Origin: Brevundimonas sp. Leaf363
GTDB taxonomy: Bacteria; Pseudomonadota; Alphaproteobacteria; Caulobacterales; Caulobacteraceae
Reading direction: 5' to 3'
NCBI RefSeq assembly: GCF_001424025.1
Contig: NZ_LMPZ01000002.1
Location: 914,550 to 978,549, forward strand
Length of the DNA stretch: 64,000 nucleotides
Under the pieces are notes generated by a model. The model had not been told where the DNA came from and made no database searches. It saw nothing but the letters and a program-made list of their open reading frames with translations. Below, in pieces: positions 2,605 to 50,159 of the stretch; within the stretch, counting starts at the first letter, position 1, and each line of letters starts with the position of its first letter. Made by a program: the position numbers and the translations under genes.

Positions 2605-3390
2605 GTGCTGAAGACGTCGAAAGCTTTCGATCTTCACGACTATGCCGATGCACTTCCTCGGGGAAAAACGCGAACGAAGCTTCTTTCTGCGATACGGGGC
2701 TACCTTGGCATCAAATCAGTTATACGCGATCTGACCCATGCTCGCGAGGTAATGCGTATCCTTGGTGAGCACCAGGCGAAGGAGACCCCTGGCAGACAAA
2801 CGCTGGATTCGGCCCTGCTGGGTCGAGCCCTTTTTAATCAAGCGCTGCTCTTATACGTCGGTGCGACAAAGACAGTATCGCATTCGAGACCCCCATTTGA
2901 TGGCTGGCGAATGTATAGCGAGAATGATCGGAAGAGGCATAAGGTCATATGCGATCTCAGAGACAACGCTATTGCGCATTATGGGCCTGGGGGTGAGCTG
3001 CTGCGCCAGCCGTGGGTAGAGGATCGTTTAGCCTTAGTCGTAAACTCGCAAACAGATATGCTTCACCTCAAACCATGCTACAAAATATCTGCCACCAAAG
3101 GTGTCCTGTCTGATGATCTTCGGGCCCTTATCGAACTGGCTTTGTCCTTAGCCGAGTTACGAGTTAACCCAAAAGCTGAAGACCTCTTCAATCTGCTGCG
3201 CACGGAACACGGGGCGGGTCAGGATCTACTCGAAAAATCGCCGTTCGACCCCATGAAGTTCTTTGACAACGAACCCGCAGCAGCGGCCTTTTGGGAGACC
3301 GGCCCAAGCGAAACGAATATGATTAGTATAAGCGCCGATAGGCGGCAGGTCGTGCGCGACGACAGTCTCAACCGGACGGGGGAAAGCTAA
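2605..3390 (+). CDS. Putative HEPN-motif protein, phage cargo gene
   Basis: This 261-aa protein is encoded on the strand opposite to the late operon. Its base composition is visibly lower in GC than its neighbours, a sign of recent acquisition. Residues 119-125 read RDNAIAH (R-x5-H) within a helical stretch (KVICDLRDNAIAHYGP). This matches the R-x4-6-H motif of HEPN ribonucleases, including AbiU2-like abortive-infection proteins. No membrane segment or signal peptide is present. HEPN membership is an inference from one motif. The gene call is firm, with ATG 2605 just after an AT-richer spacer. It could be a defence or exclusion gene expressed from the prophage. Confidence 0.7.
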   Translation: MLKTSKAFDLHDYADALPRGKTRTKLLSAIRGYLGIKSVIRDLTHAREVMRILGEHQAKETPGRQTLDSALLGRALFNQALLLYVGATKTVSHSRPPFDGWRMYSENDRKRHKVICDLRDNAIAHYGPGGELLRQPWVEDRLALVVNSQTDMLHLKPCYKISATKGVLSDDLRALIELALSLAELRVNPKAEDLFNLLRTEHGAGQDLLEKSPFDPMKFFDNEPAAAAFWETGPSETNMISISADRRQVVRDDSLNRTGES

Positions 3391-22551: not shown

Positions 22552-22917
22552 TTAGCGAACGATGATGCCGAGGGCCTTCAGCGCCGCGTTGGCCGTGGCC
22601 TTCGCGGTGGCATCAGCCCCGGATTGGTAGATGAGGTGCGCGCCGTTCACTTCGGCGTCGCGGGTGACGACGGTCTTGCGGACGGTGCCGACCGCGGCTT
22701 CCCAAAGGATGCCGGCGATGGTCTGCGAACCGTCCGAGCCGCCCGGCGCATAGGCGACGTAGTTGCCGCCCGACGTCAGCTTGCCGAGGATCGTGCCGGC
22801 GGTCAGGCCCGGCGCGGCGCCAGCGGCGACGGTCACAGCATCGCGGCTGCGATACATGCCGTTGGCCTCGGAGACGAGGAAGTTCGCGGTGCCCCGCGTT
22901 TCGTTGAGAATGGCCAT
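22552..22917 (-). CDS. Head decoration protein (gpD-like)
   Basis: The 121-aa size and sequence (FLVSEANGMYRSRDAVTVAAG, GTILGKLTSGGNYVAY, AGILWEAA) match the lambda gpD head-stabilising family. It binds capsid threefold sites after expansion. Confidence 0.85.
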   Translation of the reverse strand: MAILNETRGTANFLVSEANGMYRSRDAVTVAAGAAPGLTAGTILGKLTSGGNYVAYAPGGSDGSQTIAGILWEAAVGTVRKTVVTRDAEVNGAHLIYQSGADATAKATANAALKALGIIVR

Positions 22918-22920
22918 GTC

Positions 22921-23442
22921 TTAGGCACCCTTCTTCAGCTGGGCGACGCCGGCCGCGGCGAAGACGCCGTCGTTCCACGCGTCGTTCGCGTTCATGGAGT
23001 GGTCCTGGGTACGGATGGCGTCGCGCACGCTGTCGTTTGCGGCGTCGACGGTCTTCATGTCCCAGGCAGCGTTGACGTAGTCGTCCGACTGGCCGTTCGC
23101 GGCGTCACCGATGATGGCGCGCTTGATCTCGGCGTTGGACTTACCGTCCGTGACGACCTTCGGATCCAGGGCCTTCGCCTTGGTCACGACGGCGGCGCGA
23201 TCGGCCACCAGTTTGTCGAGGGCCGCACCGTCGACGACCTTCTTCTTCAGGTCCTCGTTCTCGACGTCCTTCTTGGCCTTCTCGGCGTCGGCTTCCGCCT
23301 TGGTCTTGGCGTGGGCCGCCTTCTCGTCGGACAGAGCCTTGTCCGCGACAGTGAGCAGTCCGCGCATCTTCTCGATGGCGGCGATGCCTGCATCCGTGGT
23401 TTCGACCGGCAGGCCGTCCACGGTGATGGTCTTGAGCGTCAT
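22921..23442 (-). CDS. Nested scaffold protein from internal start
   Basis: ATG at 23442 (MTLKTITVDGLPV) is preceded by AAGGAG, at a spacing of 9 nt. It would give 173 aa in the same frame as the protease C-terminus. The content is a long coiled coil rich in Lys, Ala, Glu and Asp, then a compact tail. This reproduces the lambda C/Nu3 arrangement. The ribosome site is seen; the expression is inferred. Confidence 0.6.
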   Translation of the reverse strand: MTLKTITVDGLPVETTDAGIAAIEKMRGLLTVADKALSDEKAAHAKTKAEADAEKAKKDVENEDLKKKVVDGAALDKLVADRAAVVTKAKALDPKVVTDGKSNAEIKRAIIGDAANGQSDDYVNAAWDMKTVDAANDSVRDAIRTQDHSMNANDAWNDGVFAAAGVAQLKKGA

Positions 23443-24039
23443 GTGACGATCTCCTTGGTGGACGGGCGCTTGCGATTGGCCGTTCTCGGGAGCGCCCATG
23501 TCCCCGATGCGGCATTCTGATCCGGCCCGACCCCGCCCAACGATGGCGAGGTGGTTGCCGCGGATGTTCTTCTGGATGGCGTCGTAGGCCTGGCCATCGG
23601 CGGTCACGCCGGGCTCGAACGCGAGGTCGCAGGTGTAACCGCAGGACAGTTCCCGCTTGCCGGCCTTCCAGGCGTCGATGGCGGCCTTGTCCATCACGAC
23701 CATCGGCACGCGGATGAACGCGCCGTCACGGGCGATCTCGTTGCCGGTGATGCCGACGCTGTGATCTTTCCAGTTCGTCGCCGAGACCGACTCCGCCGGG
23801 TGGTCGTTCGTCACCGGGCGGTGCGCGAAGCTGGCCATGGCGTCGGTGGAGAAGACCTCGCTCTCGGGACGCAGAACCCGCACGACGGCCTGGTCGCGGA
23901 AGCCGTGCCTGTTCTCGGGGTCGGCCTCCTTGCCGCGATAAAGCTGTATGCCGGTGCGCGCGATCTTGGCGTCGGCCACGAGGTATCCGTCCCGCGTGAG
24001 CCTGGGCTCGCCGAGGGCGACGGCGTCGAAGATCTGCAT
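22921..24039 (-). CDS. DUF2213 prohead protease with C-terminal scaffold region
   Basis: The N-terminal ~190 residues of this 372-aa protein are the DUF2213 domain, with FAHRPVTNDHP, AGKRELSCGYTCD (candidate catalytic Ser) and NHLAIVGRGRAG (candidate His). This is an HK97/S78-like protease layout. Residues 200-372 are a charged coiled coil typical of scaffolds. An internal ATG at residue 200 with a strong ribosome site would make the scaffold alone. Confidence 0.85.
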   Translation of the reverse strand: MQIFDAVALGEPRLTRDGYLVADAKIARTGIQLYRGKEADPENRHGFRDQAVVRVLRPESEVFSTDAMASFAHRPVTNDHPAESVSATNWKDHSVGITGNEIARDGAFIRVPMVVMDKAAIDAWKAGKRELSCGYTCDLAFEPGVTADGQAYDAIQKNIRGNHLAIVGRGRAGSECRIGDMGAPENGQSQAPVHQGDRHMTLKTITVDGLPVETTDAGIAAIEKMRGLLTVADKALSDEKAAHAKTKAEADAEKAKKDVENEDLKKKVVDGAALDKLVADRAAVVTKAKALDPKVVTDGKSNAEIKRAIIGDAANGQSDDYVNAAWDMKTVDAANDSVRDAIRTQDHSMNANDAWNDGVFAAAGVAQLKKGA

Positions 24040-24057
24040 CTACGACCCTTTCTTCGG

Positions 24058-25311
24058 ATGTGGACTCAGCGTCTGGTTGCGCGCGACCTGTTGGAGGGCA
24101 CCTTGGAAGCTGAACAAGAACAGGTGGCGAGCTTCACCCTCGCAGACGGCACCGAGTGGCGCCTCTTGGGGTGGCAGCGCATAATCGCGTGGATCGACGA
24201 GTTTCGTGCCGCTTGGGAATGGACCGAGCGGGAGCCTACTCTAAACGACCCAAGCGGTGGATACACTGGGTACTTAACCAGTCGCCTAGACCAACTCAGG
24301 TCGCAGGCGGAGGCGAGACGTCAACAAGGCCAACAACCAGCATCTTTTACGCAGGACGTCCCTGCTACCATGGACATCTACGCACCGTTTCACCCCAGCA
24401 GTGAGAACGGAACGCTGGTGGCGGATATTCGGAGAGCTGCCGGGGCTGACGCTGCAATCTTCGCTGTCCACCTGCTGCGTGGTCTTGTGAACCCCGTCAA
24501 TGCAGTAGCGCTCCCCTTTCTTCGTGGTGCGCTTTTCGTAGCTCAGCCGAGTCTTCTGGCGGGGGATGATGCCGCTCAGGCAATGAGGGACGAAAGAACT
24601 CGGTTCAAACGGTCCGTGAACGAATTCCGCGAGCGCCAGGATTTAGCCGAATCGGATCGGCAAGCGGCCTGGGCCTCAGCTCTGGAGGAAGCGGGATCAA
24701 CGGCGCGAACATGGGCCCGAACACTTACTAAGCGATGGCTTCGCTATTCCACGCATGCTCGCCGCAAAGAGCGTGCTTCGATGGAAAAGCTTCACGCGAC
24801 CGATAAGGCTTTCACTGAGCAAATGGGTTTGAGGGGGCCAGTGAAGTATTGGAAGGATAAGGCAGAAGCACACGAAGGTTCGGAGGCGTTGCTACGCCTC
24901 TTCGTGATTGCCTTCTTTGTTATAGCAATGGGCGCGATTGTCTGGGCGTTCTGGTCAGTGGGGTGGACGCTGATCAACTTAGCCCTGAGGCCTGACGCAC
25001 CAGCCATTCCTTCTGGCGTATATGTGGTTGCCTCTGCCGGGTTGGGTTCGGCAGCAGCCGTTTTGTTCTGGGCCGGTCGCCTGCTTACGAAGCTCTACCT
25101 CAGCCAACACCACCTGAGGCAGGATGCGCAAGAAAGGGCCACGATGGCCGAGACCTACCTAGCCCTGATCGAGAACCAGGCTGCGGACCCGGAAGACCGC
25201 CAAGTCATCCTGACCGCCCTTTTCCGCACCACTACGGATGGCATTGTGAAAGAGGAGGGCGGGCTAGATCCCAGCATCGCCGCTGCGTTGGGCAAGTACC
25301 TCGCCAAGTGA
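24058..25311 (+). CDS. DUF6161-like two-TM membrane protein, cargo gene
   Basis: The start is ATG 24058, 18 bp from the divergent start of the protease; the longer frame upstream is antisense to the protease. The 417-aa protein has a helical N-terminal ~275 residues with an RERQD/RRKER charged region. Membrane segments lie near 280-303 and 321-342. A conserved-looking end (DRQVILTALFRTTTDGIVKEEG) recalls the DUF6161 family. The last 48 bp overlap the portal 3' end on the other strand. Codon use is less GC-biased than its neighbours. It sits on the opposite strand inside the head operon, as a moron does. The function is unknown; superinfection exclusion or defence is an inference. Confidence 0.75.
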   Translation: MWTQRLVARDLLEGTLEAEQEQVASFTLADGTEWRLLGWQRIIAWIDEFRAAWEWTEREPTLNDPSGGYTGYLTSRLDQLRSQAEARRQQGQQPASFTQDVPATMDIYAPFHPSSENGTLVADIRRAAGADAAIFAVHLLRGLVNPVNAVALPFLRGALFVAQPSLLAGDDAAQAMRDERTRFKRSVNEFRERQDLAESDRQAAWASALEEAGSTARTWARTLTKRWLRYSTHARRKERASMEKLHATDKAFTEQMGLRGPVKYWKDKAEAHEGSEALLRLFVIAFFVIAMGAIVWAFWSVGWTLINLALRPDAPAIPSGVYVVASAGLGSAAAVLFWAGRLLTKLYLSQHHLRQDAQERATMAETYLALIENQAADPEDRQVILTALFRTTTDGIVKEEGGLDPSIAAALGKYLAK

Positions 25312-26664
25312 TCCAGACGTGTCAGGCGCGCCCATGGCCGCTCCCTGATCCAAGTCGTCTTCGTCGTCGGGTAGCGCGCCGAACTCTTCGACCGCCCCTT
25401 CCAGTCCGGCCAGTGAGCCATCCTCGATGAACTCGTTGACCAAAGCCGTCGACAGGGCGTCTGGCGAGATCAGGGGTTCGGAGGTGCCGCCGTTGCCGCG
25501 CAGGGTGCGGGCGGCATCAGACTTGGTCTTGAAGATGTCCGCCTTTTCCTTCTCCGACATCTGCCAGAGCGGGTTCCAGACGTAGTGGATGGCCGGGTCG
25601 CGGGCTCCGATGGCGGAGCGGATCGTAGCCTCGTCCAGCCGCATCATGGCGGGCGTCATCTCCAGCTCTTGGCCGGCCGAAATGCGGTCGTAGTAGTTCC
25701 GGAGGTCGCTCTCTCCGGTGCTGTTCATCCCGCCTGGCGACATGCCCATGAACCGGGTCATCGGGATGTCTGCGGCACCCGCCGCGTGCTGGTCGAAGCG
25801 GTCCATCAGGTCAGGCAGGGTGCCGAAACTGACGGCCTTGCGGTCGTAGGTGTTCTTGGCGTCCAGCACGAGGGCGCGGAGGTTGGATTTGGCGTCCAGG
25901 TTCATCCGCAACAGCTCGCGGACCTTGTCCTCGCCGCCGTTCATCTTGAGGATCTCAGCCAGGCCCTCGATCGACACCACGTCGACGTTGGCCTCGTAGA
26001 TCAGGCTGTTGATGTTGGCCGCGGCGCTCTCGGCCTGCTTCACCGCGTCGATGACCGACACGAGCACGCTGTCGCCCCAGCCATAGGCGGTGCTGGTGAT
26101 GTCGCGGTCCGGCAGTTCGTTGCCGGCGAAGATGGTCAGGCGCGAGGGGTGGATCGAGACCTGGCCCGTCGTTCCGCCTGAGATGTTCCAGACCTTCGGC
26201 GTCCCGTAGAACTCCGACATAGGGTCGGTGTCGATCTCGCCAGGCACCAGCTGTCGAGGCGTGAAGATCGATAGGAAGCGGATGCCACCCTTCTTCACCT
26301 TGGACACGTCCAGCGGCTTCGAAGCGTCGTCGCCGAGGTCGGTGTAGATGGCCGCGCCACCGAACAGTCGGCCCTTCTTGCGGGCGTCCAGCACCTTGCC
26401 CCGGACGTTGAGGCGCTTCTCTTCCGCCTCGATCAGCTCGATCTGATCCTGCTTCGCCTGCCACGCGCGCCAGTTCCGGCAGCTATCCAGCGCCGGAATG
26501 TCCACGACCTTCCGGGCCATCCATGAGCCACGGTAGGCGTTGACCAGCTGCAGGTGGTCGAGAGTGGGCTCGGCGTAGTAGGTCGAGGCCGCCTTGTCGC
26601 GCTCCGTGCCAAGGCCCGACAGCACGTTGGCCAGGCCGTCTTGGACGAGGGTCTCGCTCATCAA
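25264..26664 (-). CDS. Portal protein (DUF1073 type)
   Basis: This 466-aa protein has YRGSWMARKVVDIPALDSCRNW, GGAAIYTDLGD and MTRFMGMSPGGMNSTGESDLRNYYD, typical of DUF1073 portals. It forms the dodecameric DNA gate at the capsid vertex. The start overlaps the terminase stop by 4 nt. The 3' 48 bp are overlapped tail-to-tail by the DUF6161-like gene. Confidence 0.9.
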   Translation of the reverse strand: MMSETLVQDGLANVLSGLGTERDKAASTYYAEPTLDHLQLVNAYRGSWMARKVVDIPALDSCRNWRAWQAKQDQIELIEAEEKRLNVRGKVLDARKKGRLFGGAAIYTDLGDDASKPLDVSKVKKGGIRFLSIFTPRQLVPGEIDTDPMSEFYGTPKVWNISGGTTGQVSIHPSRLTIFAGNELPDRDITSTAYGWGDSVLVSVIDAVKQAESAAANINSLIYEANVDVVSIEGLAEILKMNGGEDKVRELLRMNLDAKSNLRALVLDAKNTYDRKAVSFGTLPDLMDRFDQHAAGAADIPMTRFMGMSPGGMNSTGESDLRNYYDRISAGQELEMTPAMMRLDEATIRSAIGARDPAIHYVWNPLWQMSEKEKADIFKTKSDAARTLRGNGGTSEPLISPDALSTALVNEFIEDGSLAGLEGAVEEFGALPDDEDDLDQGAAMGAPDTSGSLGEVLAQRSGDAGI

Positions 26665-28310: not shown

Positions 28311-28701
28311 TCTCTGCCTCCGTCAGGTTGGCGAACTCGACCGGCCCACCCTGGGGACCAGTATGCCGAAGCGTGTGCTGCGGGCCGTACTTGGCGGGCT
28401 TGCGGATACCTGCCGACCACTTCTTGGCGTCGATGGCCACGCGCGCCGCCTGGGGGTCGAGGGTGCCCTCTATGACCTTCTCGCCGATGTCTCCCACGGC
28501 GTCCGCATCAGCGTCGGCCTGATCCTCACGCGCGAGCGCGTAGCTCTGCCGAAAGTCCGAGCGCTCCCGAAGCCAAGTCATGACGGTGCGGTAGGCGGGC
28601 ATCTCGTCGTCGCGGCAAATCTTGGCCAGGCTTTCGCCGCACGCGAGCCGGATGCAGATCTCGCCAGCCGTCGCCTCGTTGAATGAGGTGGGTCGGCCCA
28701 T
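28246..28701 (-). CDS. Terminase small subunit
   Basis: The start is ATG 28701 (MGRPTSFNEATAGEIC). The 151-aa protein has an N-terminal helix-turn-helix (SLAKICRDDEMPAYRTVMTWL) and matches the Sf6/GpA-type small terminase family that recognises the packaging site. It is the first gene of the late operon; 70 bp separate it from the divergent DUF2188 gene. Confidence 0.8.
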   Translation of the reverse strand: MGRPTSFNEATAGEICIRLACGESLAKICRDDEMPAYRTVMTWLRERSDFRQSYALAREDQADADADAVGDIGEKVIEGTLDPQAARVAIDAKKWSAGIRKPAKYGPQHTLRHTGPQGGPVEFANLTEAEIDARLAALAGDAGAAAPDAEA

Positions 28702-28771
28702 AGGTTTGGTCCCTGTTGCGGCTGGAGCGCCTCTTGGGGCAGGGTGCCGTCTCCAGAAAAGGAGGTCCGCT

Positions 28772-29023
28772 ATGGCCAAGGCGCCCAAAAGAGCCGTTTA
28801 CCACTCCACGCCCGACCCGAAGGGAAGCGGCTGGGTAGTTACCCGCGACGGCAAGAAGGTCTCGGGCCACCGAAAGCAGGAGACGGCAGAGAAGGCGGCC
28901 ACCAAGGCAGGGCGTCGCGCTCTCGACGAAGGCGGCCTGGGCCAAGCGGTTCTTCACAAGTCCGATGGCACCATTCGCGAGGAGCGGACCTACGGTTCAG
29001 ATCCCGCCAAAACGCCCGGCTAG
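28772..29023 (+). CDS. DUF2188 domain protein, 83 aa
   Basis: The start is ATG 28772 with a good AAGGAGG site 6 nt upstream. The pattern W(V)VTRDGKKVSGHRKQETAEKAATKAGR and a final KSDGTIREERTYG match DUF2188. These are small basic proteins of unknown role, often beside phage or restriction genes. It points away from the terminase operon. Confidence 0.8.
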   Translation: MAKAPKRAVYHSTPDPKGSGWVVTRDGKKVSGHRKQETAEKAATKAGRRALDEGGLGQAVLHKSDGTIREERTYGSDPAKTPG

Positions 29024-29533: not shown

Positions 29534-30088
29534 TCACGGCCTGTTCCTCTCGTGAATGCGATCTTCGAGTTCCGCTAGGCCCCAATCCATAAAATAGGCC
29601 AGCCACCATGACTTCTGACGCTTGGTCAGCGGGCACATTCGGTCTTCAGGCACGCCTCGCGCCCTCCACTCATCGTTTTGTGCCCTCAGATTGATCAGCT
29701 GGCGAACATGCGGCTCGTCCGCCTCTATTGTGATCCTGCGAGATCGTGCTTGGTGAAGGTGCTCATCGTCGGCAGGCCAAAGGGCCATGTCAGCCGCCAG
29801 TTTCGTAAAATCCTTGGTTAGCTTGTCATGGAGGTCAGCCTTTTTGGCGAACCCGTACACCAGGTTCAGCGTGCTTGTGACGCCCACGACGGCCATCAGA
29901 ATCTTGGCGATGAGCGTAGTTCTATCGACTAGAAAAAGGGCCACGAATGCCCCTGAACCGCTGACCGCCGAGATCGCGGTTATAAGATCGGCTATCCGCC
30001 GGTAAAACTCTCGCATTGCCGAGTGATACCGGCGGCTTCGGCCTACTCCGCACGAAACGACATAAAAGCCGCCGTCGTCCCAAGTCAT
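29534..30088 (-). CDS. SLATT-like two-TM protein, putative membrane effector
   Basis: In this 184-aa protein, residues 16-31 are GRSRRYHSAMREFYRR, TM1 is about 35-54, TM2 is about 59-79, then a helical region KKADLHDKLTKDFTKLAADM and a charged C-terminus. This plan (RYH, two TM, then a coiled coil) resembles the SLATT domain predicted as a membrane effector in nucleotide-signalling defence systems. The start overlaps the stop of the proline-rich gene by 4 nt (ATGA). The composition is less GC-rich than the flanking phage genes. The SLATT identity is an inference from pattern. Confidence 0.65.
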   Translation of the reverse strand: MTWDDGGFYVVSCGVGRSRRYHSAMREFYRRIADLITAISAVSGSGAFVALFLVDRTTLIAKILMAVVGVTSTLNLVYGFAKKADLHDKLTKDFTKLAADMALWPADDEHLHQARSRRITIEADEPHVRQLINLRAQNDEWRARGVPEDRMCPLTKRQKSWWLAYFMDWGLAELEDRIHERNRP

Positions 30089-48781: not shown

Positions 48782-49224
48782 CGGCGGCTGTCCGTCACCG
48801 CGTCGATGTCCGGCCGGCGCCGTCAGACTGGGCCGATGATGACCCCATGACCCTGGCGGAGTTCGCCATCGTCTTCGGGGAGGCCTACCCCTTGACCGTG
48901 AGCGCCATGCGAGCCGAGATCCATCGCGGGCGCTTGACGGCCTCCTGTGTCGGGGGCTCCTACTGGGTTACCCCCGCGAGCGTGAAGGCTCTGTTCCGAT
49001 GCCCCGTCAGTCCAAAGGCCCGCGCCTCTACCTCCGCAAGGGGCGGGTCGACAACCGAACCGGGCAGAGGCTCCCCGACCGGTTCTTCATCCGTGACGGA
49101 TCGACTGAGGTCGGCACAGGCTGCGGCCCGGAGCGCATGGACGAAGCCGAGCAACGACTCGCAGCCTACATCGGCGAGAAGTGGACGCCGCCAGCCGCCG
49201 AAAGTGATCCCGCTAAGGTCTTAG
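48778..49224 (+). CDS. Excisionase-like protein, overlaps integrase
   Basis: The N-terminal ~75 residues form a MerR/Xis-like winged helix: MTLAEFAIVFGEAYPLTVSAM, HRGRLTASCVGGSYWVTPASV. After that the frame runs through 49224 while the integrase starts at 48999 in another frame. The tail is Ser/Pro/Arg-rich. The short N-terminal domain is confidently DNA-binding; whether the whole frame is used is less certain. Confidence 0.7.
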   Translation: MTAAVRHRVDVRPAPSDWADDDPMTLAEFAIVFGEAYPLTVSAMRAEIHRGRLTASCVGGSYWVTPASVKALFRCPVSPKARASTSARGGSTTEPGRGSPTGSSSVTDRLRSAQAAARSAWTKPSNDSQPTSARSGRRQPPKVIPLRS

Positions 49225-50159
49225 TCGCGGACGTTCTGGCGCTCTATGGCCATGAGCGCGGGCCGAAGCTCAAGAGCAAGGCGGCGTCGAACCTGGGCTT
49301 CACCAACAATCTGTTGGCCTGGTGGGGAGCCCGAACGCTATCCGACGTGCGACGGACCACGTGCGCCGCCTACGTCAAGCACCGCACGTCTCAGCGGATC
49401 CGCCACGGGGACACCGGGCGTATGGTGACGCCGCAGACCGCACGACGCGAGCTAGAGCTGCTGTCGGCCGCGATCGGCTACTGGGATGGCGAACACCACC
49501 TGACGCGGCGGCCGGCCGTCATCCTGCCCGAGAAGCCTGAGAGCAACCGAGACGCCCTCAGCCGAAAGCAGGCCGCTGCCCTGGTCTGGGCTTCGATGGG
49601 CTGGGATCGGATCGAAGGGGAGTGGAAGCGCCCCTCGACCAACGCGCGCACCAACCGGATGCACCTGCGCCGTTTCCTGCTGATCGGGCTCTACACCGGC
49701 TCGCGGTCGGACGTGATCAAGCGCCTTTGCTGGTCCGAGAGCCTGCATGACCCGTGGGTCGATCTGGAGGCGGGGATCATCTATCGGCGGGGCAGGGGAG
49801 AGCAGGAGAGCCGCACGAAGCGCCGGCCGCTGGTGAAGCTGCCGCACAGGCTCCTGAGCCATATGCGCCGCTGGCACGCCCTCGACGCGAAGGCGGGGCG
49901 GACGACGGTGCTGCACTTCGGAGGCGAGCCGGTCGGGTCTGTCCGCACGTCCTTCGCCAGCTGCGTGGCGGGCGCCGGTCTCAACCCCGAGGTGACGCCG
50001 CACTGGCTACGACACACCGCCGCGACCTGGCTGATGGAGCGGAACGTGGTCACCTGGGAAGCCGCCGGCTACCTCGGGATGACGGCCGCGACCCTCGAAA
50101 ATCACTATGGCCACCATCGCCCGGACCACCAGTCGGCCGCGCGGAAGGCGATGGGCTGA
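48999..50159 (+). CDS. Tyrosine recombinase (prophage integrase)
   Basis: The catalytic domain of this 386-aa protein has Arg in YTGSRSDVIKRL (~236), HWLRHT (His 335, Arg 338) and the nucleophile Tyr 370 in ENHYGHH. The N-terminal part is an arm-binding-like domain. Located ~100 bp before the tRNA-Val 3' fragment, its expected attachment site. It recombines attL and attR with the upstream excisionase-like protein. Confidence 0.9.
   Translation: MPRQSKGPRLYLRKGRVDNRTGQRLPDRFFIRDGSTEVGTGCGPERMDEAEQRLAAYIGEKWTPPAAESDPAKVLVADVLALYGHERGPKLKSKAASNLGFTNNLLAWWGARTLSDVRRTTCAAYVKHRTSQRIRHGDTGRMVTPQTARRELELLSAAIGYWDGEHHLTRRPAVILPEKPESNRDALSRKQAAALVWASMGWDRIEGEWKRPSTNARTNRMHLRRFLLIGLYTGSRSDVIKRLCWSESLHDPWVDLEAGIIYRRGRGEQESRTKRRPLVKLPHRLLSHMRRWHALDAKAGRTTVLHFGGEPVGSVRTSFASCVAGAGLNPEVTPHWLRHTAATWLMERNVVTWEAAGYLGMTAATLENHYGHHRPDHQSAARKAMG

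What the first reader, a model, noticed from the sequence alone, without database searches (positions are those of the whole stretch)
24058..25311. DUF6161-like membrane gene splits the head operon and overlaps the portal antisense
A 417-aa two-TM protein on the opposite strand sits between portal and protease. Its 3' end overlaps the last 48 bp of portal. The codon use differs from the phage core. Such placement gives lysogen-stage expression and antisense effects on portal, and suggests a selected accessory function such as exclusion.
Basis: inference. Interest (0 to 1): 0.63.

Follow-up and report, generated by a model that had tools for sequence, protein, structure and literature searches.

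The report
AbiZ-like gene in reversed phage slot
A virus hidden in a bacterial chromosome carries, backwards between two capsid genes, a membrane protein of the AbiZ family that probably protects its host from rival viruses, and dozens of related viruses use the same backwards slot for other cargo genes.

Summary
In detail: a 417-codon ORF (24058-25311, +) lies between portal and head protease of a prophage, against the head operon, and overlaps the last 48 bp of portal. It is DUF6161 (PF19658); its C-terminal 160 residues alone match the AbiZ abortive-infection profile, and 11 of 12 family members scanned (window included) match it. DUF6161 is patchy (5 of 249 genomes of the order); in four loci placed elsewhere it sits beside BREX pglX, PifA or Drt3 genes.

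The larger finding is the place. Of 97 distinct junctions in related phages (portal at least 50% identical), 87 carry an insert; by strict criteria one reverse-strand gene fills it in 45, a forward gene in 1. Cargo GC3 is below both flanks in 48 of 48. Cargo turns over: 100 reverse ORFs fall into 66 clusters, among them DUF6161 (3 junctions), putAbiC, SLATT, NYN and PD-T7-4-like genes; most are unknown. Three portal tails tested in relatives carry Acb1 (anti-CBASS); this portal does not.

Best reading: an AbiZ-like exclusion gene in a reverse-oriented cargo slot, expressed in the lysogen and perhaps silenced by the phage's own late transcription. Expression, function and that switch are untested.

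The parts
24058..25311 (+). DUF6161 / AbiZ-family cargo gene, 417 aa from ATG
   Evidence: PF19658 1.8e-20; AbiZ PDLC02354 5.1e-11
24093..24105 (+). probable ribosome-binding site GGAGG (24093-24097) and TTG start (24103), giving 402 aa
   Evidence: sequence; inference
24547..24882 (+). cytosolic part of the long predicted helix (residues about 164-275), possible coiled coil (inference)
   Evidence: AlphaFold2 model, helix 164-310
24892..24960 (+). first transmembrane segment, residues about 279-301
   Evidence: hydropathy; model
25018..25086 (+). second transmembrane segment, residues about 321-343
   Evidence: hydropathy; model
25102..25251 (+). conserved C-terminal stretch of the family (residues 349-398)
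   Evidence: S349, H352, L353, D356, E359, F389, G395 invariant in 72 sequences
25264..26664 (-). portal protein; no Acb1 tail domain
   Evidence: PF06381 is its only Pfam match; Acb1 in the tails of L033, L177, L183
25264..25311 (.). 48-bp convergent overlap of the 3' ends of cargo gene and portal
24040..25263 (.). cargo slot between portal and protease
22921..24039 (-). head maturation protease (DUF2213), other border of the slot
   Evidence: PF09979, phrog_530
22552..22917 (-). head decoration protein
   Evidence: PF02924
21512..22537 (-). major capsid protein E
   Evidence: PF03864

Best explanation
The gene is a prophage-borne member of the DUF6161/AbiZ family, held in a recurrent cargo slot between portal and protease whose genes, in the nearer relatives, mostly read against the head operon. 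Shown: family, position, recurrence, orientation bias, foreign composition, cargo turnover, defence genes beside some homologues. Inferred: in the lysogen, with the late operon off, the gene is transcribed from its own promoter; the protein sits in the inner membrane as a two-helix hairpin with a long cytosolic N-terminal region and a conserved cytosolic tail; infection by another phage triggers it and it permeabilises the membrane or fires the invader's holin early, so the cell dies before progeny are ready, as AbiZ does in Lactococcus. Also inferred: on induction, late transcription runs through the gene antisense and shuts it off, so the prophage does not abort its own burst.
For: Family: PF19658; C-terminal fragment alone matches AbiZ at 3.9e-9 while an 89-aa coiled-coil fragment alone does not; 11 of 12 family members (window included) match AbiZ, best 5.5e-24; a DUF6161 protein on dairy plasmid pUCCL629C, with AbiA and LlaJI nearby, aligns with the family at probability 99.2, 8.2e-20 and with the window protein at 3e-12, 21% over 177 aa. 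AbiZ: early lysis and 100-fold lower titre (passage in PMC7182436); [quoted passage not shown] Slot: 87 of 97 junctions with an insert, strict strand count 45 to 1; GC3 below both flanks in 48 of 48; DUF6161 in the slot in 3 distinct phages. Neighbours: pglX, PifA twice, Drt3a.
Against: No expression or phenotype data. No sigma-70-type promoter found. Similarity to AbiZ is confined to the C-terminal half; the N-terminal half differs. Only a minority of cargo clusters have a defence-like match, and 57 other genes of this prophage also give PADLOC matches, mostly regulators. The neighbour scan had no matched background. No fold match explains function. In portals under 50% identity forward inserts outnumber reverse ones. 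The antisense off-switch is a deduction from orientation alone.
Confidence: 0.55

Rival explanations
1. Selfish or weakly useful moron: the slot is a spot that tolerates reverse insertions because the head operon does not depend on it; the orientation bias only reflects purging of inserts that disturb late expression, and this gene has no strong anti-phage effect.
For: Cargo is very diverse and mostly without known function; no promoter shown.
Against: Three slot homologues stay intact although they share only 42-63% identity, so the frame is probably under selection; some homologues sit beside BREX, PifA and Drt3 genes.
Confidence: 0.2
2. Lysis-timing gene of the phage itself: a two-helix membrane protein that tunes its own holin.
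For: AbiZ acts on lysis timing (passage); two membrane segments.
Against: It is antisense to the late operon, so poorly placed for late expression; homologues outside phages lie next to defence genes in the placed cases.
Confidence: 0.08
3. One reading: the gene's transcript is a selected antisense regulator of portal.
For: Convergent 48-bp overlap.
Against: Other phages have unrelated cargo in the same orientation, and the overlap differs (15 bp in L161); portal needs no repression in a lysogen whose late operon is off (inference).
Confidence: 0.05
4. Toxin-like lysogeny maintenance gene that kills cells losing the prophage.
For: Membrane effector architecture (inference).
Against: No partner gene in the slot; the one gene fills it.
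Confidence: 0.06

Closest known systems
AbiZ of Lactococcus lactis (plasmid-borne abortive infection)
   Same: Homologous C-terminal region with two membrane segments and the conserved tail; similar length (432 against 402-417 aa)
   Different: N-terminal half not aligned; Gram-negative prophage instead of plasmid; function not tested. That the plasmid protein is AbiZ itself is my inference from AbiA and LlaJI nearby; the record names it only DUF6161 domain-containing protein
P2-like and P4-like prophage and satellite defence hotspots (PMC9122126, passages seen)
   Same: Small locus between two conserved phage genes with fast turnover of anti-phage genes
   Different: P2's lies next to cos between gpA and portal gpQ; here the slot is inside the head operon between portal and protease, in 45 of 87 inserts a single reverse gene by strict criteria; no cargo tested
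BstA prophage abortive infection with aba self-immunity (PMC8585504, passages seen)
   Same: Prophage Abi protein that must not block its own induction
   Different: BstA uses a DNA element; here I propose silencing by antisense late transcription
Acb1 anti-CBASS nuclease (PF23474)
   Same: The domain is fused to the portal tail in the three relatives tested and borders the same slot
   Different: Absent from this portal; a counter-defence and not a defence

Membership tests
DUF6161 (PF19658) | Profile score above the curated cut-off | tested here: met
   73.8 bits against 27
AbiZ | Match to the PADLOC AbiZ profile, not by coiled coil alone | tested here: met
   5.1e-11 whole; 3.9e-9 for the C-terminal 160 aa, none for the coiled-coil fragment. 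The model also rings in one of 14 control genomes, M. jannaschii
AbiZ | Similarity over the full length | tested here: not met
   Alignment to the lactococcal protein only over 236-417 of the 424-column family profile
AbiZ | Premature lysis of phage-infected cells and lower burst | not testable with these tools
   needs an experiment
Prophage defence hotspot | Conserved flanking phage genes with interchangeable content | tested here: met
   L161 and L031: portal 93.3%, protease 90.5% identical, different cargo; 66 cargo clusters; at least 71 changes of cargo label on a quick portal tree, 93 rows and 56 labels, so 55 is the floor
Prophage defence hotspot | Content protects against phages | tested here: inconclusive
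   Profile matches only: putAbiC, SLATT_5, NYN, PDC-S45, PDC-S31, PDC-M72A, PD-T7-4, AbiZ among 47 representatives; a control of 57 prophage genes also matches 14 PADLOC families, mostly regulators
SLATT two-TM effectors | Profile or fold match | tested here: inconclusive
   No Pfam SLATT match; six SLATT-named rows in the viral fold search, all E above 0.4

The most novel reading that the evidence does not exclude
Orientation is the safety catch. This phage group keeps its anti-phage gene inside its own head operon, in reverse, so that the gene is on in the lysogen and is switched off by late transcription when the prophage itself is induced: self-immunity encoded by gene orientation, usable with any cargo, which would explain why unrelated genes pass through the slot in one orientation.
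Probability: 0.27. Interest if true: 0.82.

Novelty: new variant of a known kind. Interest (0 to 1): 0.63.

Why it matters
It gives a predicted anti-phage role to DUF6161 in a Gram-negative prophage, and it marks a fixed address, the portal-protease junction, where candidate defence genes can be looked for in many phages; most of the cargo clusters there have no known family. It also makes an open question testable: how a prophage that carries abortive-infection genes avoids aborting its own induction. The Acb1 tail beside the slot puts a counter-defence and a defence-like cargo at one locus.

Tried and rejected
Direct homologues in phage records: none by tblastn for the window protein or for L161's. 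Literature: full-text searches for 'DUF6161' and 'putAbiC' found no paper; searches for prophage, portal, moron, hotspot, late-operon and Acb1 terms listed no paper that I recognised as describing this slot (listings only). The library holds only open-licence papers, so this is not proof of absence. The AbiZ paper itself (PMC1797342) is not held.

Promoters: no sigma-70-type match. No conserved block in the 90 bases before the protease start in 37 slots; only the start region itself is conserved. Folds: Foldseek gave nothing at E 0.001 or below in PDB or viral models; VIA-align rows (Z up to 10.9) are long-helix proteins of unrelated kinds; a sequence profile against solved structures found only weak coiled-coil-type matches (best 0.0089).

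Weakened: the link 'portal without Acb1-length tail always has an insert' (61 of 61 against 26 of 36, Fisher 2e-5) is not significant once the tree is considered (median p 0.25) and has exceptions among portals under 50% identity (8 without tail or insert). PADLOC mad3 beside DUF6161 was dropped: the model rings in 14 of 14 control genomes. Other controls: PglX rings in 6 of 14 (the match in L110 is full length, E 0), PifA in 2 of 14, Drt3a in 0 of 14. Of four PifA places found in the 34 genomes, two lie beside DUF6161. The slot is not the only one: 18 of 87 terminase-portal gaps are also 150 bp or more, with the longer ORF on the minus strand in 12 of these 18. Protease to next gene is 0 of 86. 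With the window's own proteins as queries, terminase-portal was 0 of 6, protease-decoration 0 of 18, decoration-capsid 0 of 17.

Rows dropped before counts: of 201 loci, 24 lacked portal or protease; junctions with identical flanks were merged (177 to 153), but near relatives remain, so counts are not independent events. The 97 are those with portal at least 50% identical to the window's; in the 56 below 50% forward genes prevail (22 forward, 7 reverse, 10 unclear, 16 none, 1 without ORF). The reverse class of 67 in the 97 includes short ORFs; the strict count is 45 to 1 of 87. Clusters were made from 100 reverse ORFs of all 153 junctions, unclear calls included, so some are shadows. Family scans used 47 of the 66 clusters; I left out 19 that looked like shadows or were unclear, the largest of six members (L232) among them, and gave L031's shorter ORF. 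Neighbour scans used 135 proteins, those of 34 of 55 loci with full flanks; one ORF overlapping the DUF6161 gene was dropped. The DUF6161 tree used 77 rows.

Full report
WHAT IS THERE. At least bases 156 to 48781 are a prophage: IMG/VR holds a provirus contig that maps there (offset computed by me). A + strand ORF at 48999-50159 reads to me like an integrase (recalled, not searched). The head genes read on the - strand. Between portal (25264-26664) and protease (22921-24039) lies one + strand ORF, 24058-25311, that ends 48 bp inside portal. A TTG at 24103 with GGAGG before it is the likelier start. The gene has GC3 0.63 against 0.89 and 0.88 for 900-base parts of portal and protease.

WHAT FAMILY. 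Pfam gives DUF6161 at 1.8e-20, PADLOC gives AbiZ at 5.1e-11. Because the AbiZ model also rings in one of 14 control genomes, I tested fragments: the last 160 residues keep the match (3.9e-9), an 89-residue coiled-coil stretch does not. Of 12 DUF6161 proteins, window included, 11 match AbiZ, best 5.5e-24. A dairy Lactococcus plasmid carries a 432-aa DUF6161 protein; AbiA is the second listed gene after it and a LlaJI restriction gene follows within 6 kb. It aligns with a 72-member family profile at probability 99.2, E 8.2e-20, over the C-terminal 175 columns only, and with the window protein at 3e-12, 21% identity over 177 residues. So DUF6161 and AbiZ share the membrane and tail region; the N-terminal halves differ.

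WHO ELSE HAS IT. DUF6161 occurs in 5 of 249 genomes of the order and 10 of 398 of the phylum, the window's own included in both. A scan of species genomes met 75 loci, from Pseudomonadota to Bacteroidota, and viral contigs gave 16 loci, one of them this prophage. Among 135 neighbour proteins from 34 loci, PADLOC matched 353 families at 1e-5, of which 25 are shown; there is no matched background for this number, and many models overlap. I placed four cases by coordinates: pglX of BREX ends within a few bases of DUF6161 in an Oxalobacteraceae genome (L110); PifA is the next gene in a Sphingomonas genome (L101) and the second gene on in a Phyllobacterium genome (L103); Drt3a is the next gene in Uliginosibacterium (L119). 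mad3 was uninformative. At least one homologue stands between ordinary genes (L008, my reading of the ORFs). Patchiness and company fit a mobile defence gene, not a housekeeping gene.

THE SLOT. I collected portal and protease relatives. Of 201 loci, 177 have portal then protease on one strand; 153 junctions are distinct. Among the 97 whose portal is at least 50% identical to the window's (this prophage included), 10 have less than 150 bp between the genes and 87 carry an insert. By the loose rule the longest ORF is reverse in 67, forward in 4 and unclear in 16; by the strict rule (90 aa or more, 70% of the gap, 1.5 times the rival) a reverse gene fills the gap in 45 and a forward gene in 1. 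In all 48 reverse cargo genes compared, GC3 is below that of both flanks (median 0.595 against 0.82 and 0.775). A ribosome-site-like motif before a start lies in the reading frame in 21 of 48 and in the other two frames in 5 and 2. In portals under 50% identity the picture changes: 7 reverse, 22 forward, 10 unclear, 16 without insert and 1 without ORF, of 56. Next to the slot, protease to next gene shows no gap of 150 bp or more in 86, terminase to portal shows 18 of 87, so a lesser second site exists.

TURNOVER. One hundred reverse ORFs from all 153 junctions, unclear calls included, fall into 66 clusters. L161 and L031 have portals 93.3% and proteases 90.5% identical but different cargo: DUF6161 in one, a small Zn-ribbon-like ORF in the other. 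DUF6161 occupies the slot in three distinct phages (window, L178 = L161, L183); portals are 79-86% identical, cargo 42-63%. On the family tree the three form one clade (98*), next to the B. lenta gene, so one entry followed by fast divergence fits better than three entries. On a quick portal tree, cargo labels change at least 71 times, the floor for 56 labels being 55.

WHAT THE CARGO IS. Of 47 cluster representatives (19 clusters not scanned), Pfam finds putAbiC (a cluster of six junctions), SLATT_5, two DUF4145, NYN, DUF2971, Trypsin_2, Acyl_transf_3, Imm45, GFA, ankyrin and a solute-binding/ligand-channel protein besides DUF6161. PADLOC finds PDC-S45 (7.3e-103), RTasSLATT (1.2e-28), PDC-S31 (1.9e-25), PDC-M72A, PD-T7-4, an ankyrin model and AbiZ. 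As a control, 57 other genes of this prophage match 14 PADLOC families, mostly regulators, so the bare number of matches is no proof. The slot is a cargo slot in which known and candidate defence genes recur; most cargo is unknown.

THE PORTAL TAIL. Many relatives have a portal longer by about 160-190 residues. In the three tails tested this is Acb1 (PF23474; 7e-31, 6.7e-43, 1.2e-42), an anti-CBASS family. By length, 36 of the 97 have such a tail; most of these were not domain-tested. The window's portal has no Acb1 match; L183 has both tail and reverse DUF6161. The tail state changes at least 19 times on the portal tree. Whether tail and cargo exclude each other is not shown.

HOW IT MAY WORK. 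The AlphaFold2 model (pLDDT 86.4, pTM 0.45) has a mostly helical N-terminal part with two short strands, one helix from 164 to 310 and a second from 319 to 372 with a short loop: read with the hydropathy, a membrane hairpin with a long cytosolic stalk and a conserved cytosolic tail (topology inferred). [quoted passage not shown] I infer the same outline: an infection signal, perhaps a structural protein, triggers the hairpin and the membrane or the holin fires early. In the lysogen the late operon is off and nothing opposes the gene. After induction the operon reads through it in antisense. This would give self-immunity by orientation and would explain one orientation for many cargoes. It is untested, and I found no promoter.

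VERDICT. Prophage defence hotspots are known (PMC9122126, passages); one inside the head operon with reversed single genes, beside a portal that in relatives bears Acb1, is to my knowledge a new variant, and my paper searches (listings) did not show it.

Noticed in passing
window 2605-3390 (+): 261-aa gene of low GC3 (0.56) on the strand opposite to the late genes around it; no Pfam match. A second reverse cargo candidate.
   Followed up: partly
window 29534-30088 (-): 184-aa protein with a weak SLATT_4 match below cut-off (0.0043), a match to phrog_11791 of unknown function, and no Pfam match.
   Followed up: partly
window 28622-29023 (+): DUF2188 protein, also PADLOC PDC-S16, reverse to the terminase genes beside it.
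   Followed up: no
L222, L250, L244 and others, terminase-portal junction: 18 of 87 related phages have a gap of 150 bp or more between terminase and portal, with the longer ORF on the minus strand in 12 of the 18: a lesser second slot.
   Followed up: partly
L033:7216-7812, L177:6207-6833, L183:6210-6830: Portal proteins with a C-terminal Acb1 anti-CBASS domain.
   Followed up: partly
L011 9711-10892 (-): A DUF6161 homologue in another genome of the same genus lies beside what I read as tail and lysis-type genes and a DNA adenine methylase, so probably in another prophage (names recalled).
   Followed up: no
L031 7371-7637 (-), L194, L259: Small Zn-ribbon-like reverse ORF (MALY..D) recurring in the slot; no Pfam match for L194's copy.
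   Followed up: no
L197 and L210, before the protease start: Two phages with unrelated cargo share the same 40-odd bases between cargo and protease, as expected if cassettes are swapped between fixed ends.
   Followed up: no
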